NCBI RefSeq assembly: GCF_028583545.1
Contig: NZ_CP087106.1
Coordinates: 3,208,501 to 3,272,500 of the forward strand
From: Methylobacterium sp. NMS14P
GTDB taxonomy: Bacteria > Pseudomonadota > Alphaproteobacteria > Rhizobiales > Beijerinckiaceae
Reading direction: 5' to 3'
Length of the DNA stretch: 64,000 nt
Part shown: positions 40,066 to 54,669 of the stretch, in pieces
How the letters are laid out: every line of letters begins with the position of its first letter
Position numbering within the stretch: position 1 is the first letter of the stretch
Program-made: the position numbers and the translations under genes
Notes under the pieces: generated by a model
Seen by the model: the letters and a program-made list of their open reading frames with translations, nothing else
Database searches by the model: none
What the model was told of the DNA's origin: nothing

Positions 40066-41127
<1,062 letters not shown>

Positions 41128-41241: not shown

Positions 41242-41405
41242 CAGGCGGACCCGCCCGGCGCCCGTGACGAGCGGGGCCCTGTGAAACTTTCGGCGGGATG
41301 ACGGACCTCCCGGGATGCTATGGGATCGCGCGCCGGCCGCGGTGCCGGAACCGGGCCCGTCGCGCGCGGACATCTCAGGGGCCGACATCCAGGGGACGTG
41401 AGCAC

Positions 41406-42599
41406 ATGTCGTTATCGGGCCTGACCGCGCGGGAGATCCTGCCCGCCGACGGATGCCGGGGCACCCTCGCGGGCCGGGTGTGGCGGCCGGACGTGGCTGG
41501 TCCCAGCGTCGTGGCGATCCGCGCCGACGCGGGCGGCGCGGCCCGAATCGTCGACGTCACCGCCGCCTTCCCCACGGTGAGCGACCTGTGCGAGGCCCGG
41601 GATCCCGCTGCCGCCCTGCGCGGTGCCGAGGGCGAGGACCTCGGCAGCCTCGACGCGATCCTGGCCAACACCGCGCCCGACGGGCGCGACGTCAACCGGC
41701 CGTGGCTCCTGGCGCCGGTCGACCTGCAGGCCCTGAAGGCCGCGGGCGTGACCTTCGCCACGTCCATGCTGGAGCGGGTGATCGAGGAGCGCGCCCGGGG
41801 CGATCTCGCCGCCGCGGCGGCGATCCGCGCCGAGGTCGAGCGCTTGGTTGGCCGCGACCTGCGCCGGCTCAAGCCCGGCTCGCCCGAGGCCATGGCCCTC
41901 AAGGAGGTGCTGGTCGCGCAGGGCGCCTGGAGCCAGTACCTGGAGGTCGGAATCGGCCCGGACGCCGAGATCTTCACCAAGGCGCAGCCGCTCTCGGCCG
42001 TGGGCTGCGGCGCGGATGCGGGCCTGCACCCGGACTCGCACTGGAACAACCCGGAGCCCGAGGTGGCGCTGGCGGTCACCTCCGATCAACGGATCGTCGG
42101 CGCGACGCTCGCCAACGACGTGAACCTGCGCGACTTCGAGGGCCGGTCGGCGCTGCTCCTCGGGAAGGCCAAGGACAACAACGCCTCCTGCGCCCTCGGG
42201 CCGTTCCTGCGGCTGTTCGACGACTCGTTCGGGCTCGACGACGTGCGCCGCACCACCGTCACCCTGGAGGTCGTCGGCACGGACGGGTTCCGGCTGGAGG
42301 GAACCTCGCCGCTGTCCGAGATCAGTCGCGACCCGGAGGAGCTGGCCGAGGCGCTGATGGGGCGGACGCACAATTACCCGGACGGCGCCCTCCTCCTCCT
42401 CGGCACGATGTTCGCGCCGATCCAGGACCGGCACGGGCCGGGCCTCGGCTTCACCCACGCCGAGGGCGACCGGGTCGCGGTGGCGAGCCCGGAACTCGGC
42501 AGCCTGGTCAACCGCATGCGCCCCTGCGACGCCTGCGAGCCCTGGACGTTCGGCGCCCGCGCGCTGATGCGCAATCTCGCCGCCCGCGGGCTTCTGTGA
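41406..42599 (+). CDS. xylX: Fumarylacetoacetate-hydrolase-family dehydratase (XylX-like)
   Basis: A 397-residue protein of the FAH superfamily. It resembles Caulobacter XylX, the 2-keto-3-deoxy-D-xylonate (pentonate) dehydratase of the oxidative Weimberg pathway, in motifs such as GRVWRPD, WSQYLEVGIGPDAEIFTKAQ, SHWNNPEPEVALAV and LLLGKAKDNNASCALGPF; this comparison is from recall, not alignment. The metal ligands of the FAH fold would be acidic residues in the NPEPE segment and downstream. The ATG at 41406 follows an AGGGGA sequence. The likely product would be an alpha-ketoglutarate semialdehyde. A 2-oxopentenoate-type activity remains possible. Confidence 0.75.
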   Translation: MSLSGLTAREILPADGCRGTLAGRVWRPDVAGPSVVAIRADAGGAARIVDVTAAFPTVSDLCEARDPAAALRGAEGEDLGSLDAILANTAPDGRDVNRPWLLAPVDLQALKAAGVTFATSMLERVIEERARGDLAAAAAIRAEVERLVGRDLRRLKPGSPEAMALKEVLVAQGAWSQYLEVGIGPDAEIFTKAQPLSAVGCGADAGLHPDSHWNNPEPEVALAVTSDQRIVGATLANDVNLRDFEGRSALLLGKAKDNNASCALGPFLRLFDDSFGLDDVRRTTVTLEVVGTDGFRLEGTSPLSEISRDPEELAEALMGRTHNYPDGALLLLGTMFAPIQDRHGPGLGFTHAEGDRVAVASPELGSLVNRMRPCDACEPWTFGARALMRNLAARGLL

Positions 42600-42657
42600 C
42601 AGAGCGTCGGCCGCCGTGCCGCCCCAGACCAAGCCCGAGCCCGCCGAGATGATGCCG

Positions 42658-44025
42658 ATGACCGACGCCCGCCTCCTCGACCGCCTCGCCGCGATCGTCG
42701 GATCGTCCGGCCTCGTCACCGGCGACGAGCTGCGCGGACGCTCGGCCAACTGGACGCGGCCGGCCGAGCCCTGCGCGGCCCTCGCGCTGGTCCGTCCGCG
42801 CGACACCGCCGAGACCAGCGCGGTCCTGGCGGTCTGCCACGCGGCGGGCGTTTCCGTGGTGCCGCGGGGCGGCGCCACCGGACTCGTCGACGGCACGCTC
42901 TGCGCCCCCGACGAGATCACGCTCTCGACCGAGCGCATGACCGGGATCGAGCCGGTTGACCCATTGGGCATGACGGTGGTGGTCGGCACCGGCGCCACCA
43001 TCGAGAGCGTGCAGGATGCCGCCGCGTCGAGCGGCCTGTTCTTCCCCCTCGACCTCGGCGCCCGCGGCTCGGCGACGATCGGCGGCGCGATCTCCACCAA
43101 TGCCGGCGGCCTGCGGGTGCTGCGCTACGGCATGATGCGCGAGATGGTGCTGGGCCTGGAAGCGGTGCTCGCCGACGGCACGGTGGTGTCGTCCATGCGC
43201 CCGCTGATCAAGAACAACACTGGCCTCGACCTGAAGCAGCTCTTCGTCGGCACCGAGGGCACGATGGGCATCGTCACGCGGGCGGTGCTGCGGCTGCGCC
43301 CGGAACCGGCGGGCTACGCGACCGCGCTGATCGCCTGTCCGGGCGTGGACGACGGGGCTCGGGTACTGCGGGCGGCCCAGAGCGCCTTTCAGGGGCGCGT
43401 CTCCTCCTTCGAGGGGCTGTGGCCCGACTTCTACCGGCTGATGACGGCGCCGGGGCGCGCGACGCCGCCGCTTGGCCACGATTACCCGTTCTACGCGATC
43501 ATCGAGGTCGAGTGCGTCTCCGAGGAGTCCGACCGCTTCCTCGGCCTGCTCGAAGGCCTGATGGGCGAGGGCACGATCCTCGACGCGGCGATCGCCTCCT
43601 CGGAGGAGCAGCGCCGGGGCATGTGGCGCATCCGCGACCGCGTGGAGCACCTCAACGCCGACGGGATCGAGCGCGCCTTCGATGTCAGTGTGCCCCTGGC
43701 TAAGATGGACGGCTACGTCCGCGGGGCGCTCGACCGGCTGGCCGCGATCCCGGGCTGCCGGGCCGTGGTCTACGGGCATATCGGCGACAACAACCTGCAC
43801 TGGAACACGACCCGCCTCGACGCCGCTGGCAACGCGGCCATCGATGCGGCGATCTACGAGCCCCTGGCGGCGCTGAACGGATCCGTCTCGGCGGAACACG
43901 GGATCGGCCTCGAGAAGCGGGCCAAGCTGAAGCTGTCGCGCTCTCCCGAGGAGATCGCGGTCATGCGGCTGGTCAAGCGGGCGCTCGACCCGGATAACCG
44001 CCTGAACCCCGGCAAGATCTTCTGA
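42658..44025 (+). CDS. FAD-linked oxidase (D-lactate/D-2-hydroxyglutarate dehydrogenase type)
   Basis: A 455-residue protein with the PCMH FAD-binding domain (VSVVPRGGATGLVDGTLCAPDEITLS and GGAISTNAGGLRVLRYGMMREMVLGLEAVLADG) and a FAD-linked C-terminal domain with YGHIGDNNLHWN and SAEHGIGLEKR. It belongs to the GlcD / D-2-hydroxyglutarate dehydrogenase branch and passes electrons from a D-2-hydroxyacid to FAD. The start is uncertain: GTG at 42616 or ATGs at 42649, 42652 and 42658 are in frame. It follows the xylX-like gene, so it may act on a product of the same sugar-acid route. Confidence 0.87.
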   Translation: MTDARLLDRLAAIVGSSGLVTGDELRGRSANWTRPAEPCAALALVRPRDTAETSAVLAVCHAAGVSVVPRGGATGLVDGTLCAPDEITLSTERMTGIEPVDPLGMTVVVGTGATIESVQDAAASSGLFFPLDLGARGSATIGGAISTNAGGLRVLRYGMMREMVLGLEAVLADGTVVSSMRPLIKNNTGLDLKQLFVGTEGTMGIVTRAVLRLRPEPAGYATALIACPGVDDGARVLRAAQSAFQGRVSSFEGLWPDFYRLMTAPGRATPPLGHDYPFYAIIEVECVSEESDRFLGLLEGLMGEGTILDAAIASSEEQRRGMWRIRDRVEHLNADGIERAFDVSVPLAKMDGYVRGALDRLAAIPGCRAVVYGHIGDNNLHWNTTRLDAAGNAAIDAAIYEPLAALNGSVSAEHGIGLEKRAKLKLSRSPEEIAVMRLVKRALDPDNRLNPGKIF

Positions 44026-44035
44026 GATTCCTGCG

Positions 44036-44317
44036 GTGGCGATCCGGCTGGCGGTGCGCCTCACGCCGCGCGGCGGCCGCGACGCCGCGGAGGGTTGGGC
44101 CCGCGACGCGAAGGGCCAATCCTACCTGAAGGCCCGGGTCACGGCCCCGCCGGTGGACGGGGCCGCGAACGCGGCGCTCGTGGTCGTGATCGCCAAGGCG
44201 CTGAAGGTCAGCCGCGGATCGGTCCGCATCGTCACCGGCGACCAGAGCCGTCTGAAGATCCTGGAGATCGACGGCGTCGCGCAGGCGGATCTGGACCGGG
44301 TGTTCGGACCGCCCTGA
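44036..44317 (+). CDS. DUF167 (YggU-family) protein
   Basis: A 93-residue YggU/DUF167 protein of unknown function. Family landmarks are RLAVRLTPRGGRDAAEG, YLKARVTAPPVDGAANAAL and RIVTGDQSRLKILEIDG. It starts with GTG 10 bases after the oxidase gene. Such genes are widespread, often in unrelated neighbourhoods, so the position probably carries no functional meaning. Confidence 0.87.
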   Translation: MAIRLAVRLTPRGGRDAAEGWARDAKGQSYLKARVTAPPVDGAANAALVVVIAKALKVSRGSVRIVTGDQSRLKILEIDGVAQADLDRVFGPP

Positions 44318-44335
44318 TCAATTCCCGACGTCTTC

Positions 44336-44411
44336 GCGAGCGCAGCGAAGCAATCCAGCCGCGCCACGCTCACCATCGTCCCGCTGCCCTGGATTGCTTC
44401 GCTCCGCTCGC
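44336..44411. repeat. Palindromic REP-like element
   Basis: Two 23-base arms at 44336-44358 and 44389-44411 are inverted copies with one mismatch, separated by 30 bases. The core reads CTGGATTGCTTCGCT / AGCGAAGCAATCCAG, a type of dispersed palindrome I recall as abundant between genes in Methylobacterium and Bradyrhizobium. It sits between two convergent stops, where it may also work as a transcript end. Confidence 0.7.
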
Positions 44412-44438
44412 AGAGACGGAACGGTCACGCGGACGCCC

Positions 44439-45368
44439 TCAGAACGCGACCTTGTCGCCGCCCTTCAGCGCCAGGATCTCGCGCGCCTCATCGGGTGAAG
44501 CGACGGCAAGGCCCAGTCCCTCGATGATCGAGCGGACGCGGCGGACCTGCGCGGCGTTGGTCTCGGCGAGCTTGCCCGGCCCGTCCCAGAGGCTGTCCTC
44601 CAGACCGACCCGGACGTTGCCGCCCATCGCGGCCGCCATGGCGGCGATGTTCATCTGGTTGCGGCCCGCCCCCAGCACCGACCAGCGGTACTGATCACCG
44701 AACAGCCGGTCCGCGGTGCGCTTCATGTGCATCACGTCGTCCGGATGCGCGCCGATGCCGCCCTGGAGACCGAACACCGTCTGGATGAACAGCGGCGCCT
44801 GCACGAGGCCGCGGTCGAAGAAGTATTTGAGATTGTAGAGATGCGCGGTGTCGTAGCACTCGAACTCGAACTTCGTCCCGTTCGGTCCGCAGGTCGTCAG
44901 GATATGCTCGATCTGACCGAACGTGTTGCGAAAGATGATGTCCTTGTTGCCGAGATAGTCCCGCTCCCACTGATGCTTCAGGTCCTTGAAGCGGTCGAGC
45001 ATGCCGAACAGGCCGAAATTCATCGAGCCGAGATTCAGCGAGGCGACTTCAGGCTGGAAGGTCGCGGCCGGACGGACGCGCTCCTCGATCGACATGGTCG
45101 GCGCGCCGCCGGTGGTGATGTTCACCACGCAGTTCGAGCGCTGCTTGATCACCGGCAGGAACTTGGCGAAAGCCTCGGGCGTCTGGTCGGGCTGGCCGTT
45201 CTCCGGGTTGCGGGCGTGCAGGTGCACGATGGCCGCGCCCGCCTCGGCGGCGCCGATGGCGGCGTCGGCGATCTCCTCGGGCGTCACCGGCAGGTGCGGC
45301 GACATGCTGGGCGTATGGATCGCGCCCGTCACCGCGCAGGTAATGATGACTTTCCGCTGTGAGGCCAT
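44439..45368 (-). CDS. Beta-keto acid cleavage enzyme (BKACE, DUF849)
   Basis: A 309-residue BKACE protein. These zinc enzymes condense a beta-keto acid with acetyl-CoA, giving acetoacetate and a new acyl-CoA. The metal-binding histidines are H49 and H51 (IVHLHARNPENGQPD), and other landmarks are SLNLGSMNFGLFG and GAGRNQMNIAAMAAAMGGNVRVGLEDSLW. Substrates vary widely (3-keto-5-aminohexanoate, dehydrocarnitine and others). It lies 2 bases downstream of a hydroxyacid dehydrogenase that would make the beta-keto acid, after an ABC importer on the same strand, so the three likely form one catabolic operon. Confidence 0.88.
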   Translation of the reverse strand: MASQRKVIITCAVTGAIHTPSMSPHLPVTPEEIADAAIGAAEAGAAIVHLHARNPENGQPDQTPEAFAKFLPVIKQRSNCVVNITTGGAPTMSIEERVRPAATFQPEVASLNLGSMNFGLFGMLDRFKDLKHQWERDYLGNKDIIFRNTFGQIEHILTTCGPNGTKFEFECYDTAHLYNLKYFFDRGLVQAPLFIQTVFGLQGGIGAHPDDVMHMKRTADRLFGDQYRWSVLGAGRNQMNIAAMAAAMGGNVRVGLEDSLWDGPGKLAETNAAQVRRVRSIIEGLGLAVASPDEAREILALKGGDKVAF

Positions 45369-45370
45369 GC

Positions 45371-46294
45371 TCAGTCCTTCTGTGAAGCCTTGTGGGCCCG
45401 GAGGGCCGCGAGCCGCGCGTCGCGGCGGTTCATGCGGGCGGGGAGGTCGGCGGGCGCCTGCCAGTTCGCCAGGATCGCCTCGGTGGCCGGCGCCTCGTAA
45501 ACGCTCGGCGGTGCCGGATCGGCGGCGAGGTTCTTGTAGAAGCCGGTATAGCGCGCGCAGTAATCGGCGATACCGCCGGGTGCGTTCAGCTCGATGGTCT
45601 CGAACGGTCCCATGAAGCTCCAGCGCAGGCCCAACCCGTCCGAGACGGTCTTATCGAGATCCTGCGGGGTCACGTAGCCCTCCGAGGCGAGGCGGAACGC
45701 TTCCGCCAGGAGAGCGCCCTGGAGTCGATTGAGGATGAAGCCCTCGATCTCCTTCAGCACGGTGATCGGCACCTGGCCGATCGCTTCGTACGTGATCCGG
45801 GCGCGGTCCAGCACCGCGGCGTCCGTCCACGGCGCACCGGAAATCTCGACCAGCGGGATCAGGTGCGGCGGGTTGACCGGATGGCCGATCAGGCAGCGCG
45901 AACGGCCGGGCAGGCCCTCGGTGAACAGCGAGCAGCGGATCGCCGACGACGAGGAGGCGATCACCGCGTCCGGCGGCGCCAGAGCGTCGAGCTCGGCGAA
46001 CAGGCTCTGCTTCACGTCGAGTCGCTCCGGGCCGTTCTCCTGCACGAACGCGACCCCGTCGAGGGCGTCGGCGAGGTTCCCGGCGGCGCGGATGCGGCGC
46101 GCGGCACCTTCCGGGTCGGGGCAGAGGCCGTTGGCCGCGAGGGTCCGCAGGCCCTCGGCGCAGAGCGGCACCGCGGCCTCGGCGACGCCTGCGGCGGCAT
46201 CGAACAGGCGCACGCCCCACCCGGCGCGGGCGAAGATCATCGCCCAGGCCCGGCCGATCAGGCCGGCGCCGACGATCGCGACGGACTCGGTCAT
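45371..46294 (-). CDS. Lambda-crystallin-type 3-hydroxyacyl dehydrogenase
   Basis: A 307-residue NAD-dependent dehydrogenase of the 3-hydroxyacyl-CoA dehydrogenase superfamily. It begins with the Rossmann motif VAIVGAGLIGRAWAMIFARAGWGVRLFD and has IASSSSAIRCSLF, LIGHPVNPPHLIPLVEI and EGFILNRLQGALLAEAFRL. It resembles lambda-crystallin (L-gulonate 3-dehydrogenase) and carnitine dehydrogenase more than fatty-acid HADs. It would oxidise a 3-hydroxy acid to the keto acid cleaved by the adjacent BKACE. The ATG at 46294 is preceded by GAGG. The substrate is unknown. Confidence 0.87.
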   Translation of the reverse strand: MTESVAIVGAGLIGRAWAMIFARAGWGVRLFDAAAGVAEAAVPLCAEGLRTLAANGLCPDPEGAARRIRAAGNLADALDGVAFVQENGPERLDVKQSLFAELDALAPPDAVIASSSSAIRCSLFTEGLPGRSRCLIGHPVNPPHLIPLVEISGAPWTDAAVLDRARITYEAIGQVPITVLKEIEGFILNRLQGALLAEAFRLASEGYVTPQDLDKTVSDGLGLRWSFMGPFETIELNAPGGIADYCARYTGFYKNLAADPAPPSVYEAPATEAILANWQAPADLPARMNRRDARLAALRAHKASQKD

Positions 46295-46388
46295 GGCTGG
46301 ATCCTCATGTGCTGACCGGACGATCCGATTTTCGTCCTCTTCCTGAGGTGGGCCGGTCGAACGCGCCGGGTGCGACGGGGATACCCGG

Positions 46389-48947
46389 TCACAGCCACAG
46401 CACCTTCCGCCGCAACTCCTGATCCTCGCGCAGCAGGCGCGATTCACCGGTCCACTGCACGCTGCCGCGCTCAAGCGCGACGGTGCGGTCTGAGAGCGCG
46501 AGGGCGAGGTCGAGGTGATGGTCCACCAGGATGATCGCGATCTCGCGGCGCAGGCGGTCGAAGGCCTCGAACAGCTCCTCGGTCACGGCCGGCGACAGGC
46601 CCTCGAAGGGCTCGTCGAGGAGGAGGAGCCGCGTGTCCCCCGAGAGCGCGCGGGCCACAGCCACCATCTGCTGCTCGCCCCCGGACAGGCGCGCGGCGTC
46701 CACGGTCCAGCGCTCCTTCAGCCGGGGGAAGAACTCCAGCACCCTGTCCTCGTCCCAGTGGATCCCGGCGCCGGTGAGCCGCCGAAGCCGACCGAGGCCG
46801 AGATTCTCGGCGACGCTCATCCCGGCGAACAGCGCCCGGCCCTGCGGCACGTAGCCGATGCCGAGCCGGGCGATCCGGTCCGGCGACAGGCCGGCGATGT
46901 CCTTGCCGCCGAGCACGATGCGGCCGGCGGCCGGCGGCGCGGTGCCGATCAGCGTCTTGAGCAGCGTCGACTTGCCGGCGCCGTTTCGGCCGAGCAGGGC
47001 CACGACCTCGCCCCGGCGCACCGCGAGGTTCACGCCGTTGAGGATGTGCGACTTGCCATAGAAGGTGTCGACGCCCTCCATGGCCAGCAGCGTCTCGGCC
47101 TCGGCCGCGCTGGCGCGCGGCTTCGCGGCGATCGCGGCCGTGCCCGAGCCGAGATAGACGGCCTGCACGCGCGCGTCGTCGCGCGCATCCGCCACCGAGC
47201 CGTCGACCAGCACGGCGCCGTCGGCCATCACGGTGACGCGGTCGGCGAGGCGGAACACGCGGTCGATGTCGTGCTCGACCAGCAGCACCGGGATGTCGGC
47301 CGAGAGCGCCTTGATCAGGTCGCCGACCCGCTCGCGCTCGGCCGCCGCGAGCCCGGCGAGCGGCTCGTCGAGGAGCAGGACTCGGGGCCGCGTGGCCAGT
47401 GCCAGACCCATGTCGAGCAGGCGCTGGCCGCCGTAGGACAGGCTGCCGGCCTCCGCCCGCTCGATGCCGGACAGGCCGGTCCAGCGCAGCAGCTCGGCCG
47501 TGTCGTCGGCGATCTCGCGGATCGCCAGCGCGTCCCGCCAGGGGCTGAAATGCGCCTTGTGCCGCGCCTGGACGGCGAGGCGGACGTTCTCCTCTACCGA
47601 AAGGCCGGGGAACAGGTTGGTGATCTGGAACGAGCGGCCGAGACCGGCCCGGGTGATCGCGTGCGGCTCCAGCCCGGCGATCTCGTGGCCGTCGAGGCGG
47701 ATGCTGCCCGCGCTCGGCCTGAACATGCCGGAGAGCAGGTTGAAGGCCGTGGTCTTGCCGGCGCCGTTCGGGCCGATCAGGGCGTGGAGCGTCCGGTCGG
47801 CCACCGCGAACGACACGCCGCGCACCGCCGCGACGGGGCCGAAGTGCTTCTTGATGTCGTCGGCGACCAGCACCGGCCCGTCGGTGCGGCCCTCCGCGAT
47901 GAACCGGGCCGGGACGCGGCCCGAGGCGCCGGCGCGGCGGGCCGACATGGCCGCGCCCTCGGCAGGCACGCGCCGGAACGGCTTCAGGAGCCGCGCCGCG
48001 ATGCCGACGAGCCCGTCCGGCGAGAACACGATGAAGGCGACGAACAGCAGGCCGAAATACAGCAGCCAGTCGGCCGTGTAGATCGACAGGAACTCGCGGA
48101 ACAGGATGTAGAACAGGGCGCCGAGCGCCGGCCCGAGGAACGAGCGCATCCCGCCGATCACCACCATGGCGAGCAGCTCGCCCGAGAAGGCGATGGAGAT
48201 CGGGTCGGCCGAGGTGAAGCGGTGGCTGTAGGCCGAGAGCGCCCCGGCGAGGCCGGTGATCGTTGCCGAGATCACGAAGGCCGCGAGCTTGTAGCGGTTG
48301 GTGGCGTAGCCGAGAAAGCCGGCGCGCTGCTCGTTCTCGCGGATCGCCACCAGGACGGACCCCATCGGCGAGCGGCGGAAGCGCCAGAGCCCGAACAGCA
48401 CCACGAAGGCGATGCCAGAGACGGCAGCGTAGTAGGCGCCGGGCTCCTGCAGCGCCGCCCAGCGGTGCAGGTTGCCGATGCCGTTCTCGCCGCCGGTGAG
48501 GTCCGTCCAGCGGAACGCGATGGCGTAGAGCATCGCCGTGAAGGCGAGCGTCAGGAGCGAGAAGTAGACCCCGCGCCGCCGCAGGATCAGGCCGCCGGCC
48601 ACGAGGGCGGCCAGCCCGGTGATCGCCAGCGCCCCCAGCAGCGGCAGCGCCATGTCGCCGGGGAACAGCCGGGTCTGGAGGATCGCCACCGCGTAGGCGC
48701 CGATCCCGAACCAGGCCCCGTGCCCGAACGAGGTCAGCCCGGTCCAGCCGACCAGGATGTTGAGGCCCAGCACCGCGAGGGCGAAGATCACCACGTCGGT
48801 GGCGGTGATCAGGGTCAGGCCGATCGCGTCGAGGGCGAAGGGCAGGACGATCAAGGCGGCGAGTGCCGCCCAGAGCTGGCGGCTCTCGCGCAGGATCAGG
48901 CCGCGCTGCGGCAGGGCGAGCGGCAGCGGCTCGGCGGTTCCGGACAT
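46389..48947 (-). CDS. Triple-fusion branched-chain-type ABC transporter: LivM permease + LivG + LivF ATPases
   Basis: An 852-residue single polypeptide that contains three normally separate subunits. Residues 1 to about 325 are a LivM-type permease (NILVGWTGLTSFGHGAWFGIGAYAV, FLGYATNRYKLAAFVISATITGLAGA). Residues about 357-605 are LivG: Walker A GPNGAGKTT (392-400), signature LSYGGQ, Walker B VLLLDEP. Residues about 618-852 are LivF: Walker A GRNGAGKST (653-661), signature LSGGEQQM, Walker B LLLLDEP. Short A/R/G-rich linkers join the parts and no stop interrupts them. With LivH and a binding protein upstream it makes a full importer. The ATG at 48947 fits a LivM N-terminus. Confidence 0.93.
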   Translation of the reverse strand: MSGTAEPLPLALPQRGLILRESRQLWAALAALIVLPFALDAIGLTLITATDVVIFALAVLGLNILVGWTGLTSFGHGAWFGIGAYAVAILQTRLFPGDMALPLLGALAITGLAALVAGGLILRRRGVYFSLLTLAFTAMLYAIAFRWTDLTGGENGIGNLHRWAALQEPGAYYAAVSGIAFVVLFGLWRFRRSPMGSVLVAIRENEQRAGFLGYATNRYKLAAFVISATITGLAGALSAYSHRFTSADPISIAFSGELLAMVVIGGMRSFLGPALGALFYILFREFLSIYTADWLLYFGLLFVAFIVFSPDGLVGIAARLLKPFRRVPAEGAAMSARRAGASGRVPARFIAEGRTDGPVLVADDIKKHFGPVAAVRGVSFAVADRTLHALIGPNGAGKTTAFNLLSGMFRPSAGSIRLDGHEIAGLEPHAITRAGLGRSFQITNLFPGLSVEENVRLAVQARHKAHFSPWRDALAIREIADDTAELLRWTGLSGIERAEAGSLSYGGQRLLDMGLALATRPRVLLLDEPLAGLAAAERERVGDLIKALSADIPVLLVEHDIDRVFRLADRVTVMADGAVLVDGSVADARDDARVQAVYLGSGTAAIAAKPRASAAEAETLLAMEGVDTFYGKSHILNGVNLAVRRGEVVALLGRNGAGKSTLLKTLIGTAPPAAGRIVLGGKDIAGLSPDRIARLGIGYVPQGRALFAGMSVAENLGLGRLRRLTGAGIHWDEDRVLEFFPRLKERWTVDAARLSGGEQQMVAVARALSGDTRLLLLDEPFEGLSPAVTEELFEAFDRLRREIAIILVDHHLDLALALSDRTVALERGSVQWTGESRLLREDQELRRKVLWL

Positions 48948-48961
48948 GGGACGCTCTCCGC

Positions 48962-49837
48962 TCACTCGAACCGGGCGATGTGCTCGCCGAACAGGCCGCG
49001 CGGGCGCAGCAGCAGGACCAGCACCATGAGGCCGTAGACGGCGGCCTCGGTGGCCGGCGGGTAGGCGTAGGCGGTGAGGCCCCGGACCACGCCGACGATC
49101 AGGGCGGCGAGCACCACCCCCCAGAACGAGCCGAGGCCGCCGATCACCACCACCACGAAGGCGAAGGTCAGGATCTCGGCGCCCATGGCGGGATGGACGC
49201 CGGTGACCGGGGCCATCATGGTCCCGGCGAGCGCCGCGAGCCCGACCGCGATGGTCACGACCGCGGTCATGTACGGACGGAGCGAGATGCCCAGCGCCGC
49301 GACCATGTCGGGGTTCTGCACGCCCGCCCGGACCACGCGCCCGAAGCTGGTGCGGGTCAGGAGCAGCCACAGGCCGGCGACGCAGGCGAGCGCCACGACG
49401 AGGATCGAGAGCCGGTAGCGCGAGTAGATCAGGTCGCCGATGAAGACCTGCCCGCGCAGCCACAGCGGGATCCCGAACGGCACCGGTGCCGCCCCGAACG
49501 CCATCCGCAGGGCCTGCTCGGCCACCATGGCGAGCCCGAAGGTGAGGAGCAGGCCGAGCGTCGGGTCGCCGCGGTAGAAGCGCCGCAGCAGGAAGCGCTC
49601 GATCAGCAGGCCGAGCACGCCGACGACCAACGGCGACGCGACCAGGGCGCCGCCGAAGCCGATCGTCGGCGTCAGCAGCACGGTCAGGTAGGCGCCGATG
49701 GCGTAGAACGCGCCGTGGGCGAGGTTCACGATCCCGCCGAGGCTGAAGATCAGCGACAGGCCGAGCGCGATCAGCAGGTACTGCACGCCGATCAGCAGGC
49801 CGTTGAGCACCTGCTCCAGGATGAAGACGAGCTGCAT
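48962..49837 (-). CDS. Branched-chain-type ABC permease (LivH-like)
   Basis: A 291-residue LivH permease with about eight membrane segments. The start LEQVLNGLLIGVQYLLIALGLSLIFSLGGIVNLAHGAFYAIGAYL is classic for the family. It is 14 bases upstream of the triple-fusion gene and 7 bases after the binding-protein stop, and provides the second half of the membrane channel. Confidence 0.93.
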   Translation of the reverse strand: MQLVFILEQVLNGLLIGVQYLLIALGLSLIFSLGGIVNLAHGAFYAIGAYLTVLLTPTIGFGGALVASPLVVGVLGLLIERFLLRRFYRGDPTLGLLLTFGLAMVAEQALRMAFGAAPVPFGIPLWLRGQVFIGDLIYSRYRLSILVVALACVAGLWLLLTRTSFGRVVRAGVQNPDMVAALGISLRPYMTAVVTIAVGLAALAGTMMAPVTGVHPAMGAEILTFAFVVVVIGGLGSFWGVVLAALIVGVVRGLTAYAYPPATEAAVYGLMVLVLLLRPRGLFGEHIARFE

Positions 49838-49844
49838 GGACGCC

Positions 49845-51104
49845 TCACGCCGGGAAGGTGCAGGCGTTCTCGTCGCGGGTCGTGGCGAGCACTTCCAGGC
49901 TCTCGCCCGGTCCCGGCAGCGGACCGGTGGAGGTGAAGATGTCGTAGGGGTTCTTGACCTGATCGGCCGGCAGGGCCGTGATCGCGAACATCTCCTGCAT
50001 CAGCTCGTGGTCCCAGGGGCGGAAATAGCCCTCGCGGACCTTGGCGATGTCGAACTTCGCGCCCGATTCGAGATGCTCCACGACCTTGATCGACTCGGTC
50101 GATTTCAGCTCGTTCATCGACTGGGCGACGATCTTCATCGCCGTGTAGTCGCCCCAGCCCTGGTTCTCCGGCGGCTTCTTGTACTTGGCCTTGAAGGCGG
50201 CCACGAATTTCTTGGCCGAGGGCGAGTCGATCTGGTGATGCCAGATCACCGGCCACGTGCCGAGGAAGTTTCCGGGCCCGGCGCCCCAGGCGAGCGCGGT
50301 GTCGAAGCCGAAGCCCGCGACCGGGAACGGCAGGCCGAACTCGCTGAACTGCTTGAGGAAGTTGGTGATCTGCGCGCCCGCGAGGTTGCAGATCACGAGG
50401 TCCGGTTTGGCCTGACGGAGCTTCAGCAGGAACGGCGAGAAGTCGGTGAGTTCGGTGGGGATCAGATCCTCGCCGACGAGGGTGGCGTCGTGGGCCGCGA
50501 AGTACTTCTTCGCCTGCTTCAGGAGGTCGTGGCCGAAGGCGTAGTCAGCGGTGAGCGCGTAGACCTTCCGGCCCTTGATCAGCCCCCGGTCGAGGAGCGC
50601 GCGGCCGCAGGCGCGCACCATCATGGTGTTCTGCGATTCCACGTGGAACATGAAGCGCTTGCAGTCGGAGCCGCGCAGCGCGTCCGAGTTGGCGCCGGTG
50701 TTGATGAACAGGATCTTCTCGCGCTGGGCCACCTGGCTGATCGCCAGCGCCGAAGCGGAGTTGATCTCGCCGACGAGGCAGGCGACGCGGTCACGCTGGA
50801 CCATGCGCTCGGCCTTGGCCGAGGCGGTCTGCGGATTGACGCTGTCCTCCGAGAGCAGTTCGACCTTCCGGCCCGCGATGCCGCCGGCGGCGTTGATCTC
50901 CTCCACCGCGAGCTGGGCCGCCTGCACGGCGAACTCACCGAGCGGTCCCAGGAAGCCGGTGCGCGGCGTCAGGTGGCCGATGCGGATGACGTCGGATTGG
51001 CCCTGAGACAGCGCCGGGCTCGCGAGGGCCGGCGCGAGGAGCGCCGCGCCGCCGGCGCGCAGAAGGCTGCGGCGAGAAAGGGAATCCCCGTACCGGTCCG
51101 TCAT
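49845..51104 (-). CDS. Branched-chain-type ABC substrate-binding protein (LivK-like)
   Basis: A 419-residue periplasmic binding protein (peripla_BP_6) with a twin-arginine signal (SRRSLLRAGGAALLAPALASPALS). The mature start is IRIGHLTPRTGFLGPLGEFAVQAAQLAVEEINAAGGIAGRKVELLSED, and GRKVYALTADYAFGHDLLKQ follows. Such proteins bind branched-chain amino acids, urea, amides or aromatic acids. Because the operon ends with dehydrogenase and BKACE genes, a hydroxyacid or related ligand is plausible (inference). It is the first gene of its operon, divergent from a GntR regulator 119 bases away. Confidence 0.92.
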   Translation of the reverse strand: MTDRYGDSLSRRSLLRAGGAALLAPALASPALSQGQSDVIRIGHLTPRTGFLGPLGEFAVQAAQLAVEEINAAGGIAGRKVELLSEDSVNPQTASAKAERMVQRDRVACLVGEINSASALAISQVAQREKILFINTGANSDALRGSDCKRFMFHVESQNTMMVRACGRALLDRGLIKGRKVYALTADYAFGHDLLKQAKKYFAAHDATLVGEDLIPTELTDFSPFLLKLRQAKPDLVICNLAGAQITNFLKQFSEFGLPFPVAGFGFDTALAWGAGPGNFLGTWPVIWHHQIDSPSAKKFVAAFKAKYKKPPENQGWGDYTAMKIVAQSMNELKSTESIKVVEHLESGAKFDIAKVREGYFRPWDHELMQEMFAITALPADQVKNPYDIFTSTGPLPGPGESLEVLATTRDENACTFPA

Positions 51105-51170
51105 CGTTCCGCTCCCGTGCGTGTCCTCCAGCCGGGTTTTTGCGGCGGGCTCTGGCGGCCCTCACCCGAA

Positions 51171-51187
51171 CTGTGATCACAGATCAC
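51171..51187. promoter_or_regulatory. Palindrome between liv operon and gntR, candidate operator
   Basis: CTGTGATCACAG at 51171-51182 is a perfect 12-base palindrome, and GTGATC-ACA-GATCAC at 51173-51187 is a second overlapping perfect inverted repeat. It lies in the 119-base region between the binding-protein gene and the divergent GntR gene, so it is a candidate GntR operator. Confidence 0.55.
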
Positions 51188-51223
51188 TAGCGCGATAGTG
51201 CCGGATCCGTCTAGTGTCGGCAC

Positions 51224-51937
51224 ATGAATTCCACCCTGGCCCTGGCCGAACTGCCCCAACTCGAGCGTCGGACGCTGTCCGACACCGTCTACGAGGCCCT
51301 GTCGGACCTCCTCGCCTCGGGGCGGCTGGCGCCGGGCGACCGGCTGTCCCTGCGCCAGAGCGCGGCGGCCCTCGGCGTCTCGGTGATGCCGGTGCGCGAG
51401 GCGGTGAGCCGCCTCGCGGCGGACGGCGTGCTGGAAGTGGCGCCGAATCGGGTGATCCGCGTGCCGGTCATGGGCGCGGCCGCCTTCCGGGCCCTGGTCG
51501 AGACCCGCATCGCGGTCGAGGGCATCGCGGTGGCTCGGGCCGCCGAGCGGCGGACGGCCGGCGAGCTCGCTGTGATCCGGCGCGCCGAGGCGGCCTTCCG
51601 GGCGGAGGCCGAGGCGGTGGAGCCCGACAGGGCGCGCGCCGTTCAGCTCAACCGCGACCTGCATTTCGCGATCTACGGCGCCTGCGGGCTCGGGCCGCTT
51701 CAGGAGATCATCGCCCGGCTCTGGCTGAAGGCGGGTCCGGTGATCAACCTGGATCTGCGCGCCCATCCGGAGCGCCTGCTCCAAGGCTTCGCGCTCCGGC
51801 GCCACGCCGAGGCCGTGGCGGCCGTCGAGAATCGGGACGGTGCGGCGGCCGCGACCGCGATCGCGGCCGACATCCGGGAAGCCGCGGAGTTCATCTTGAC
51901 CCGCGGCGGATTGCGGGACGTTCAGAGAGAGGACTGA
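51224..51937 (+). CDS. GntR-family (FCD) transcriptional regulator
   Basis: A 237-residue GntR regulator of the FCD subfamily: N-terminal winged HTH (LSDTVYEALSDLLASGRLAPGDRLSLRQSAAALGVSVMPVREAVSRLAADGVLEVAPNR) and a helical effector domain from about residue 90. FCD proteins usually sense small organic acids. It is divergent from the Liv-type importer and reads into an SDR dehydrogenase gene 2 bases later, so it may control both. The ligand is unknown. Confidence 0.9.
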   Translation: MNSTLALAELPQLERRTLSDTVYEALSDLLASGRLAPGDRLSLRQSAAALGVSVMPVREAVSRLAADGVLEVAPNRVIRVPVMGAAAFRALVETRIAVEGIAVARAAERRTAGELAVIRRAEAAFRAEAEAVEPDRARAVQLNRDLHFAIYGACGLGPLQEIIARLWLKAGPVINLDLRAHPERLLQGFALRRHAEAVAAVENRDGAAAATAIAADIREAAEFILTRGGLRDVQRED

Positions 51938-51939
51938 TC

Positions 51940-52707
51940 ATGGATCTGGGGATTGCCGGCTTGCGCGTCCTGGTGACGGCGGGCGGTGCCGGAATCGGTC
52001 GTGAGATCGTCGACGCCTTCTTGGACGAAGGCGCGCGCGTCTTCGCCTGCGATATCGACACGGAGGCCCTGGCCGCGCTGCCGGACACAGTCGGGCGCAG
52101 CCGCACCGACGTCGCCGACCGCGCCGCGGTCGCCGCGATGATGGACCAGGCGGTCGAGTTCCTCGGCGGCCTCGACGTTCTGGTCAACAATGCCGGGATC
52201 GCCGGCCCGACCGGCCGTGTCGAGGAGATCGCCCCCGAGGAGTGGGACCGCTGCCTGACGGTCTGCCTGACCAGCCAGTTCAACTGCGCGCGGCTGGCGG
52301 TGCCGCACCTGCGCCAGAGCGCCAATGCCTCGATCGTCAACCTCTCCTCGGCCGCCGGCAAGTTCGGCTTCGCCCTGCGCAGTCCCTACGCCGCCGCCAA
52401 GTGGGGCGTGATCGGCTTCACCAAGTCGCTGGCGATCGAGCTCGGCGGCGCGGGGATCCGGGTGAACGCGATCCTGCCGGGTCTGGTCGCCGGGGATCGC
52501 CAGCGCCGGGTTCTCGAATCGAAGGCCCAGCAGCAGGGCACGAGCTTCGCCGACATGGAGGCGCGGGCGTTCTCGTTCGTGTCGGTGAAGGAATACGTCA
52601 CGGCGCGGCAGCTCGCCGACCAGATCCTGCTGCTCTGCTCGCCGCGCGGCCGGACGATCTCGGGTCAGGCCATTTCCATCGACGGTGACACGCGGATGCT
52701 GTCCTGA
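51940..52707 (+). CDS. Short-chain dehydrogenase/reductase (SDR)
   Basis: A 255-residue classical SDR. The cofactor motif is TAGGAGIG (residues 13-20), NNAG is at 83-86 and the catalytic residues are S136/S137, Y150 and K154 (SPYAAAKWG). D38, D40 in FACDIDTE favour NAD. The ATG at 51940 has AGAGAGGA ahead. It sits between a GntR regulator and a sugar-acid dehydratase, so it is probably the sugar or hydroxyacid dehydrogenase of that small pathway. The substrate is not readable. Confidence 0.88.
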   Translation: MDLGIAGLRVLVTAGGAGIGREIVDAFLDEGARVFACDIDTEALAALPDTVGRSRTDVADRAAVAAMMDQAVEFLGGLDVLVNNAGIAGPTGRVEEIAPEEWDRCLTVCLTSQFNCARLAVPHLRQSANASIVNLSSAAGKFGFALRSPYAAAKWGVIGFTKSLAIELGGAGIRVNAILPGLVAGDRQRRVLESKAQQQGTSFADMEARAFSFVSVKEYVTARQLADQILLLCSPRGRTISGQAISIDGDTRMLS

Positions 52708-52776
52708 AATCAATCCAGAGCCGGAGATGCTGCGGCTGATTACCCGCCGGAGTATTGCAAGATCGAGCCCATGGCG

Positions 52777-52794
52777 CCGCGACCGAGGTCGCGG
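52777..52794 (+). promoter_or_regulatory. Tight hairpin between the SDR and dehydratase genes
   Basis: CCGCGACC at 52777-52784 and GGTCGCGG at 52787-52794 are perfect 8-bp arms with a 2-base centre, in the 156-base gap before the dehydratase start. It could be an operator palindrome or a transcript-processing hairpin that sets different levels for the two genes. Confidence 0.4.
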
Positions 52795-52863
52795 TGCCCG
52801 CGGCGGCAGCGGAAGACAGGAGCCGGACCGCCAGCGCCGGCCACAGGATGCGAGGAAGCGACC

Positions 52864-54669
52864 ATGAGCGACAAACGCCGGATCACGCCCGCCGACCTGC
52901 GCTCGAAGGCCTGGTTCGACAACCCGCACAACCCGGGCATGACCGCCCTCTACCTGGAGCGCTACCTCAATTACGGGCTGACGCCGGAGGAGCTGCGCTC
53001 GGGCAAGCCCCTGATCGGCATCGCCCAGACAGGGTCCGACCTGTCGCCCTGTAACCGCCACCACGTCGAGCTCGCCAAGCGGGTGCGGGAGGGGATCACG
53101 GCGGCCGGCGGCGTCGCCTTCGAGTTCCCGTGCCACCCGATCCAGGAGACGGGGAAGCGGCCGACCGCGTCGCTCGACCGGAACCTCGCCTACCTGTCCC
53201 TGGTGGAGGTGCTGTACGGCTACCCGCTCGACGGCGTCGTGCTGCTGACCGGTTGCGACAAGACCATGCCGGCCTGCCTGATGGCGGCGGCCACGGTCAA
53301 CATCCCGGCGATCTCGCTGAACGTCGGGCCGATGCTCAACGGTTACTTCCACAAGGAGCTGACCGGCTCGGGCACGATCGTCTGGAAGGCGCGCGAGCGG
53401 CACGCGGCGGGCGACATCGATTTCCAGCAATTCATGGACATCGTCGGGTCGTCGGCGCCGTCGACGGGCCATTGCAACACGATGGGCACGGCCTCGACGA
53501 TGAACGCCCTCGCCGAGGCGCTGGGATTCGCCCTCCCCGGCTCGGCCGCGATCCCGGCGCCCTACCGCGAGCGCGGCCAGGCCGCCTACGCCACCGGGCA
53601 GCGGATCGTCGAGATGGTCTGGGAAGACCTGAAGCCTTCCGACATCCTCACCCGCGAGGCCTTCGAGAACGCCATCGTGGCCAATGCCGCCATCGGCGGG
53701 TCGACCAACGCGCCGATCCACATCAACGCCATCGCCAAGCATATCGGCGTGCCGCTGAGCTGCGATGACTGGGAGCGGGTCGGGTTCGAGATCCCTCTGT
53801 TGGTGGACATGCAGCCCGCCGGCCGCTGGCTCGGCGAGGAGTATTTTCGCGCGGGGGGCCTCCCGGCGGTCTTCGCCGAGCTCATCGAGGCCGGGAAGGT
53901 CCACGAGGGCGCGCTGACCTGCAACGGCCGCACCGTGGGCGAGAACTACCGCGGGCGGCACAGCTGGAACCGCGACGTGATCCGCGCCTACGGCGAGCCG
54001 CTGATGGAGCGCGCGGGCTTCCTGAACCTCAAGGGAAGCCTGTTCGACTCGGCGATCATGAAGACCTGCGTGATCTCCGAGGAGTTCGCCGCGCGCTACC
54101 TGCGCAATCCGAACGACCCGATGGCGTTCGAGGGCCGCGTGATCGTGTTCGACGGGCCGGAGGACTACCACGTGCGGATCGACGACCCGACGCTCGACAT
54201 CGACGAGAACACCATCCTGATCATGCGTGGGGCCGGTCCGATCGGCTATCCTGGCGCCGCCGAGGTGGTGAACATGCAGCCGCCCGGCGCCCTGATCCGG
54301 CGCGGCGTGACCTCCCTGCCCTGCATCGGAGACGGCCGGCAATCCGGCACCTCCGGCACGCCCGCGATCTTGAACGCCTCACCCGAGGCGGCGGCGGGCG
54401 GCGGACTGGCCCTGCTGCAGTCCGGTGACCGCATCCGCGTCGACCTCAACCGCCGGAGCGCCGACATCCTGCTCCCGGCCGAGGAACTCGCCCGCCGGCG
54501 CGCGGATCTGGCGGCGCGCGGCGGTTATCCCTACCCGGCGACGCAGACGCCCTGGCAGGAGATCTACCGCGATCAGGTCGAGCAACTCGACCAGGGTATG
54601 GTGCTGAAGGGCGCGGTGAAGTTCCAGAAGGTCGCGCAGACCTCCGGAGTGCCGCGGGACAACCACTGA
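52864..54669 (+). CDS. xylD: IlvD/Edd-family sugar-acid dehydratase (XylD-like)
   Basis: A 601-residue dehydratase of the pentonate branch of the IlvD/Edd family, resembling xylonate dehydratase XylD and arabonate dehydratase. The [2Fe-2S] cysteines are C63 (SPCNRHH), C131 (GCDKTMPAC) and C204 ([10 protein letters not shown]). The motif [38 protein letters not shown] is close to that of XylD from recall. It would convert a sugar acid to the 2-keto-3-deoxy acid. The ATG at 52864 has AGGA 7 bases ahead. Which pentonate or hexonate it uses is unknown; the xylX-like gene 11 kb away could act on the product. Confidence 0.88.

What the first reader, a model, noticed from the sequence alone, without database searches (positions are those of the whole stretch)
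46389..48947. LivM-LivG-LivF fused into one 852-residue polypeptide
Branched-chain-type importers use separate LivM, LivG and LivF chains; LivM-LivG fusions are known, but a single chain with the permease and both ATPases is unusual. Both ATP-binding cores keep intact Walker A, signature and Walker B, so this is a working design rather than decay. It fixes stoichiometry to one permease and two ATPase domains per chain, with LivH separate.
Basis: partly seen in the sequence, partly recalled or inferred. Interest (0 to 1): 0.72.

Follow-up and report, generated by a model that had tools for sequence, protein, structure and literature searches.

The report
Three-in-one ABC importer subunit
One long bacterial protein really does contain the membrane part and both engine parts of a nutrient importer, but the same design is conserved in many related bacteria and already has a database name, so it is mostly ordinary; the less expected point is that its second engine has two residues that ordinary versions of that part usually lack.

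Summary
In detail: 46389-48947, minus strand, is one 852-residue frame LivM-LivG-LivF, with LivH 14 bp upstream. It is neither an error nor decay. The 120 best database relatives shown (of 7952, own protein included) are all near full length; the best 80 of 319 genome loci all hold one frame; both linkers are conserved and under purifying selection. "Unusual" is overstated: NCBI already names the type "ATP-binding protein/permease", the same genome has a second, 40%-identical triple fusion, and the tree is explained most simply by two separate fusions.

Beyond the finding: (1) the LivF half of this family has H-switch His and Q-loop Gln in 22 of 22 rows; the switch is Gln or Lys in 35 of 35 systems examined that are not triple fusions. 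[quoted passage not shown] The likely cargo is a short hydroxy/keto acid, not a branched-chain amino acid. Cargo, stoichiometry and ATPase symmetry are inferred.

The parts
46389..48947 (-). LivM-LivG-LivF triple fusion, 852 aa (P0001)
48003..48827 (-). LivM permease domain, residues about 41-315
   Evidence: BPD_transp_2 at residues 47-307; helices in the model
47877..48002 (-). linker 1, residues 316-357, with invariant Met334 (AAMSxR-like motif)
   Evidence: 41-43 residues in 81 of 81 rows, Met334 in 81 of 81 (whose printed figure counts one more); dN/dS 0.21
47148..47876 (-). LivG ATPase domain, residues 358-600
47088..47147 (-). linker 2, residues 601-620
   Evidence: 20 residues in 81 of 81 rows (whose printed figure counts one more); dN/dS 0.19
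46392..47087 (-). LivF ATPase domain, residues 621-852, with H-switch His and Q-loop Gln
48962..49837 (-). LivH permease, separate gene
   Evidence: PF02653 124.4 bits
49845..51104 (-). periplasmic binding protein
   Evidence: PF13458 258.5 bits
45371..46294 (-). 3-hydroxyacid dehydrogenase (3HCDH / lambda-crystallin type)
   Evidence: NF004783 387.5 bits against cut-off 347 (longer frame given); nearest solved chain lambda-crystallin 3ado
44439..45368 (-). [quoted passage not shown]
   Evidence: NF053538 549.7 bits against cut-off 430; nearest solved chain 8rio
51224..51937 (+). divergent GntR/FCD regulator
51934..52707 (+). short-chain dehydrogenase (SDR), conserved with the locus

Best explanation
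A genuine fused subunit of a Liv-type (HAAT) binding-protein-dependent ABC importer. One chain carries the LivM half of the pore and both ATPase halves. With LivH and the periplasmic binding protein it would form an importer of one LivH plus one fusion chain, the LivG and LivF domains pairing head to tail within the chain. Shown: the open frame, the domains, conserved linkers, intact motifs, and conservation of the whole locus. Inferred: that the chain stays whole, the 1:1 assembly, and the cargo, which is probably a short hydroxy- or keto-carboxylate. In that reading the cargo is oxidised by the SDR or the 3-hydroxyacid dehydrogenase to a beta-keto acid and cleaved with acetyl-CoA by the BKACE. 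The triple fusion is most simply one of two independent events in this transporter class.
For: One frame of 852 codons; domains and motifs; the 120 relatives shown of 7952 are 801-865 aa and cover at least 94% of the query (the window's own protein is among them); the best 80 of 319 loci all fused; linkers of nearly constant length and under purifying selection. AlphaFold model mean pLDDT 84.5, pTM 0.75; its best Foldseek matches are the tandem-ATPase chains of the M. tuberculosis Dpp and Opp importers (8wdb_D, TM 0.70 on the target, 0.45 on the query, over 542 columns, rmsd 6.8). Neighbours in 80 loci: binding protein 77, LivH 77, 3HAD 74, GntR 73, BKACE 72, SDR 70. BKACE over its NCBIfam cut-off and closest to P. 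[quoted passage not shown] All triple fusions as one clade is rejected, p-AU 5e-6.
Against: No transcript or protein data. Met334 in linker 1 is invariant (81 of 81) and carries an SD-like stretch in part of the rows, so an internal start is not excluded. Some LivF-only relatives on contigs of 10-189 kb begin at the LivG-LivF junction (P0301, P0317, P0352) and could be split copies; not resolved. Four loci with downstream sequence (L024, L034, L035, L036) lack the 3HAD and BKACE, so the fusion does not strictly need them. No PF04199 cyclase match lies in the window; both matches of the genome are more than 1 Mb away, so a complete phloroglucinol pathway is not shown here.
Confidence: 0.82

Rival explanations
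1. Sequencing or assembly error, or a stop-loss, that joins separate genes by chance.
For: Such cases exist: in L129 the LivG-LivF joint reads out of frame, with the LivG switch His missing.
Against: The best 80 of 319 loci all fused; linker lengths within 41-43 and 20 residues in 81 of 81 rows; dN/dS about 0.2 in the linkers.
Confidence: 0.01
2. Dual product: besides the full chain, ribosomes start at Met334 and make a LivG-LivF tandem of about 519 residues, so the fusion keeps its own free ATPase pair.
For: Met334 is Met in 81 of 81 rows inside a variable linker; 48 of 81 rows have some ATG in the linker region (not necessarily Met334) with an SD-like 4-mer, that is 49 of 127 such ATGs, against 45 of 1133 other in-frame ATGs. 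A LivG-LivF double fusion exists elsewhere in this genome (L106).
Against: By mean anti-SD energy Met334 ranks 36th of 810 columns (47th by the fraction at or below -4.5, which is 0.64). Of 12 distinct rows with Gly in place of Glu, 9 lie at -1.9 to -2.9 and 3 at -5.3 to -6.6, and several Glu rows with a GAA codon are weak too, so a protein-level motif explains the signal better. Other invariant Met columns show the same: Met267 0.49, Met761 1.00, the latter from the LSGGEQQM signature alone (all). The rows are related, so the 48 are not independent.
Confidence: 0.08
3. A urea importer (UrtDE-like), as whole-protein NCBIfam scores suggest.
For: Whole chain scores UrtE 328.0 against cut-off 285.8 and UrtD 322.9 against 304.1. 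UrtB is also the best NCBIfam model of LivH, 187.5 against cut-off 250.3.
Against: The pass is an artefact of two ATPase domains adding up: alone, the LivG domain scores 212.5 (UrtD) and the LivF domain 209.6 (UrtE), under the cut-offs. LivH is below its urea cut-off, and the binding protein far below (115.1 against 494.8 at best).
Confidence: 0.02
4. An ordinary branched-chain amino acid importer whose catabolic neighbours are incidental.
For: NCBI names relatives as branched-chain amino acid transporters.
Against: I take those names to rest on family membership (inference). The binding protein scores 95.5 against cut-off 477 for the amino acid model, and the catabolic genes travel with the locus in 70-74 of 80 loci.
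Confidence: 0.1

Closest known systems
NCBI 'branched-chain amino acid ABC transporter ATP-binding protein/permease' (listed relatives 801-865 aa)
   Same: Same domains and length; relatives at 94-98% identity named Methylobacterium, others named Roseomonas, Muricoccus, Teichococcus, Phreatobacter.
   Different: Nothing found that sets the window protein apart from its own clade; it is a member.
Separate LivHMGF (HAA/HAAT) importers and LivM-LivG double fusions
   Same: Same PF02653 and ABC_tran parts, with LivH and mostly a binding protein nearby.
   Different: Separate or double chains; LivF switch residue Gln or Lys in 35 of 35 examined. Solved LivF-like 1ji0 has VPEG and VEQN at these places.
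Second triple fusion of the same genome (family B, G000:C1:3703722-3706079)
   Same: Same domain order in one frame.
   Different: About 40% identity, on a separate branch, LivF switch Gln and Q-loop Glu, LivG signature LPHVD.
M. tuberculosis DppD/OppD tandem-ATPase importer subunits (8wdb, 8j5q)
   Same: Two importer ATPases in one chain, placed similarly in the model.
   Different: By the alignment, matched over the two ATPases; peptide importers by title; 22-23% identity. That the chain has no permease domain is recalled.
Phloroglucinol cluster of Clostridium scatologenes (PMC10470551, passages)
   Same: SDR, 3HAD-type dehydrogenase and BKACE-type enzyme next to a transporter and a regulator.
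   Different: No PF04199 cyclohydrolase in the window; the transporter there is described as a 'major family transporter'.

Membership tests
HAAT / Liv-type ABC importer | PF02653 permease pair, two ABC ATPases and a Peripla_BP_6 binding protein in one same-strand gene run | tested here: met
HAAT / Liv-type ABC importer | Transport of hydrophobic or branched-chain amino acids | not testable with these tools
   no assay; neighbours suggest another cargo
LivM-LivG-LivF triple fusion ('ATP-binding protein/permease') | One open frame with permease and both ATPases, intact motifs, conserved in relatives | tested here: met
LivM-LivG-LivF triple fusion ('ATP-binding protein/permease') | Made and used as one chain in the cell | not testable with these tools
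   selection on the linkers is consistent
Urea importer UrtDE (TIGR03410, TIGR03411) | Each ATPase domain over its curated cut-off on its own | tested here: not met
   212.5 against 304.1 and 209.6 against 285.8
LivF equivalog of E. coli (NF008626) | Score over 441 bits | tested here: not met
   172.7 bits for the LivF part of the window fusion; 259.1 for the whole chain
NF053538 3,5-dioxohexanoate BKACE (neighbour gene) | Score over 430 bits, full length | tested here: met
   549.7 bits, residues 1-309 to profile 1-310/310
Phloroglucinol degradation cluster (PGR, DPGC, TfD, TAL) | Cyclohydrolase (PF04199) at the locus | tested here: not met
   two PF04199 hits in the genome, both more than 1 Mb from the window

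The most novel reading that the evidence does not exclude
The window's family is a Liv importer whose ATPase has become symmetric again. The LivF half of ordinary systems lacks the switch histidine (35 of 35 examined) and mostly the Q-loop glutamine (28 of 35). The histidine was regained in the ancestor of families A and A', and family A has the glutamine too. Two competent ATP sites would then sit in one chain, and the importer would hydrolyse at both sites where ordinary LivFG hydrolyses mainly at one.
Probability: 0.25. Interest if true: 0.5.

Novelty: new member of a known kind. Interest (0 to 1): 0.32.

Why it matters
A natural single chain with one pore half and both ATPases is a handy object for Liv-type importers: subunit mixing and stoichiometry are fixed, and mutations can be placed in one ATP site at a time. 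By sequence I found no solved relative of its LivM part (one single-sequence search, E up to 10). The contrast between this family (His and Gln in LivF) and the other systems examined (switch Gln 28, Lys 7; Q-loop Glu 25, Gln 7, Asp 3) makes it testable whether Liv importers hydrolyse ATP at one site or two. The conserved locus also predicts an uptake and breakdown route for short hydroxy/keto acids in Methylobacterium, Bosea and Roseomonas relatives.

Tried and rejected
Error or decay: rejected. Urea importer: rejected, because the ATPase cut-offs are passed only by adding two domains. All triple fusions as one clade: rejected (p-AU 5e-6; first run with L129 included, p 7e-23). L129 was dropped from the second tree because its LivG-LivF joint reads out of frame, so the three changes became two. 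Two changes are most simply two fusions; an old fusion with a later split is not strictly excluded. Internal start at Met334: looked striking at first but weakened under the column-wise control. Carnitine as cargo: considered; the carnitine dehydrogenase models score far below cut-off (165.3 against 592 and 149.8 against 414). Deoxyribonate as cargo: SDR plus BKACE also serve that pathway (PMC6365646, passages); not excluded. Sigma-70 promoters: 0 found at 43900-51400, 0.5 expected. Closest LivF-sized proteins: the 120 best belong to the same family by identity (66-99%), and 119 of 120 show the switch His, so they are no independent control. Many sit on contigs of 1-3 kb, but not all: P0344 is on 6.7 Mb, P0273 on 335 kb, P0354 on 275 kb. 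Of the 11 that I printed, several start inside LivG and P0301, P0317 and P0352 start at the LivG-LivF junction; frameshifted or truly split copies were not told apart. The fold comparison tests the two ATPase domains only; the permease fold was not searched alone, and LivH was not modelled.

Literature: ten searches ran (two searches showed 25 of 34 and 15 of 20 papers). No listed title or abstract start describes a LivM-LivG-LivF fusion. Passages of six papers were seen: PMC2821768 (the Brucella HAA rows shown list IM and ABC as separate proteins), PMC10470551, PMC8963497, PMC12393044, PMC6365646, PMC11961710. Print elsewhere is not excluded.

Limits of counts: my rule for a triple fusion in the genome searches was one match from query residue 60 or less to 840 or more without an inside stop. 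Searches scored only the two best candidates per genome at E <= 1e-100, so 13 of 385 (class) and 24 of 398 (phylum; G727/L129 set aside) are lower bounds, and the two samples share genomes. Neighbours count only if the best hit covers over half of the query at 35% identity or more within the held flank. Nine of 22 family A rows were left out of the trees to balance them. The LivM stretch of L135 was set by hand from the same frame. The 35 systems that are not triple fusions are 14 of the own genome, 20 and L123, all found through the window protein, so they are a sample. In one search the row names all read MGF because a plus sign was stripped; architecture cannot be read from those names. Family B counts: Q-loop 104 Glu, 16 not scored, of 120; switch 118 Gln, one His, one none, the last two being shorter proteins (P0186, P0188).

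Full report
Observation. The reverse complement of 46389-48947 is an ATG-started frame of 852 residues with one stop. Pfam finds BPD_transp_2 at 47-307 and two ABC_tran stretches. A script finds two Walker A, two signature, two Walker B and two switch-His motifs. LivH lies 14 bp upstream and the binding protein ends 7 bp before LivH.

It is not an error. A protein search scored 7952 relatives and listed 120, the window's own protein among them; all 120 are 801-865 aa and cover 94% or more of the query, and NCBI calls many of them 'branched-chain amino acid ABC transporter ATP-binding protein/permease'. In named genome records (isolates and MAGs), 319 of 358 pattern matches encode a relative; of the best 80 that were kept, all 80 hold the fusion in one frame. 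They come from Methylobacterium, Roseomonas and kin, Bosea, Tardiphaga, Afipia, Chelatococcus, Microvirga, Hyphomicrobium and two Burkholderiales or Lautropia MAGs, among others. Linker 1 has 41-43 residues and linker 2 has 20 in all 81 rows (one search prints one more for each, since it counts from the last domain residue). Among 12 close relatives of equal length dN/dS is 0.13, 0.11 and 0.09 in LivM, LivG and LivF, and 0.21 and 0.19 in the linkers. The linkers are therefore translated and constrained.

It is not rare. With my rule (see Tried and rejected), 20 of 25 genomes of the genus (own included) and 1 of 16 others carry a triple fusion; 13 of 385 in the class and 24 of 398 in the phylum, as lower bounds from overlapping samples. 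The own genome has a second triple fusion at about 40% identity. Of 16 Liv systems looked at there (15 fetched regions plus the window), 2 are MGF, 1 M+GF, 4 MG+F and 9 M+G+F. The regions were picked from the hits, so this is not a full census.

Origins. A tree of concatenated LivM, LivG and LivF domains (63 rows, careful search) places the window's family A with a smaller family A' (98/95) and puts family B elsewhere (100/100); triple fusion needs two changes, and one clade is rejected with p-AU 5e-6. The simplest reading is two separate fusions. A seeming third case, L129, was dropped because its LivG-LivF joint reads out of frame.

ATP sites. On the alignment, the LivF H-switch is His in 22 of 22 family A and 4 of 4 family A' rows, Gln in 11 of 11 family B rows and in L129, and Gln (28) or Lys (7) in 35 of 35 systems that are not triple fusions. 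The LivF Q-loop residue is Gln in 22 of 22 A, Glu in 4 of 4 A', 11 of 11 B and L129, and Glu 25, Gln 7, Asp 3 in the 35 others. So the His is special to A and A' in this sample; the Gln is not special to A. In the protein lists, family A shows His and Gln in 120 of 120. LivG has its switch His in 72 of 73 rows, the exception being L129. A LivF tree rooted on LivG domains places the His clade inside the Gln/Lys rows, which points to regain, though support is modest: the clade itself 73, the fork with the nearest unfused rows 86. That sites with these changes are weaker ATP sites is recalled general knowledge of ABC proteins, not a result here. Since family B is fused and keeps Gln and Glu, the regain is not a consequence of fusion as such.

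Locus and cargo. In the 80 loci the neighbours are binding protein 77, LivH 77, 3HAD 74, GntR 73, BKACE 72, SDR 70; IlvD, FAD oxidase and FAA hydrolase occur in 8, 9 and 8. Of the 6 loci without the 3HAD, L016 and L067 end soon after the fusion, but L024, L034, L035 and L036 have downstream sequence and lack both 3HAD and BKACE. [quoted passage not shown] The dehydrogenase is nearest to lambda-crystallin among solved chains. The same three enzyme types serve phloroglucinol breakdown in C. scatologenes (PMC10470551, passages), and SDR plus BKACE serve deoxyribonate (PMC6365646, passages). I therefore infer a short hydroxy/keto-carboxylate as cargo, without fixing which.

Internal start. Met334 in linker 1 is Met in 81 of 81 rows, and 48 of 81 rows have some linker-region ATG with an SD-like 4-mer (49 of 127 such ATGs, against 45 of 1133 other in-frame ATGs). 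Against all columns the mean anti-SD energy at Met334 ranks 36th of 810, it mostly weakens where Glu is replaced by Gly (9 of 12 distinct rows), and other invariant Met columns score alike (Met267, Met761). A protein motif is the better reading; a second product keeps a small probability.

Verdict. Real, conserved, already recognised by database names, not decay. The ATP-site contrast and the predicted catabolic route are the parts worth a test.

Noticed in passing
G000:C1:3703722-3706079 (L105): Second triple fusion in the same genome, about 40% identical, with LivF switch Gln and Q-loop Glu and LivG signature LPHVD.
   Followed up: yes
G000:C1:2064883-2066301 (L106): A LivG-LivF double fusion with LivM in a separate frame: the fourth architecture in one genome.
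   Followed up: partly
window 46389-48947, whole protein: Annotation trap: the fusion passes the NCBIfam urea UrtD and UrtE cut-offs only because two ATPase domains add up.
   Followed up: yes
window 44439-46294 and 51224-52707: Conserved catabolic set (3HAD, BKACE, GntR, SDR) found with the importer in 70-74 of 80 loci.
   Followed up: partly
window 47946-47948 (Met334 codon): Met invariant in 81 of 81 rows inside a variable linker (AAMSxR-like motif); reason unknown.
   Followed up: partly
L129 (G727): Apparent triple fusion whose LivG end reads out of frame before LivF: an error or a recent frameshift.
   Followed up: partly
P0301, P0317, P0352: LivF-only relatives that begin at the LivG-LivF junction on contigs of 10-189 kb; possible split copies of the same family, not resolved.
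   Followed up: no
window 40066-41127, minus strand: UgpC/MalK-like sugar-importer ATPase; I did not look for its permease or binding-protein genes.
   Followed up: no
window 41400-44025 and 52771-54669: FAA-hydrolase-like protein (weak Pfam match), FAD-linked oxidase and IlvD/Edd-type dehydratase flank the locus; seen in only 8-9 of 80 loci within the held flanks, so probably another sugar-acid pathway.
   Followed up: no
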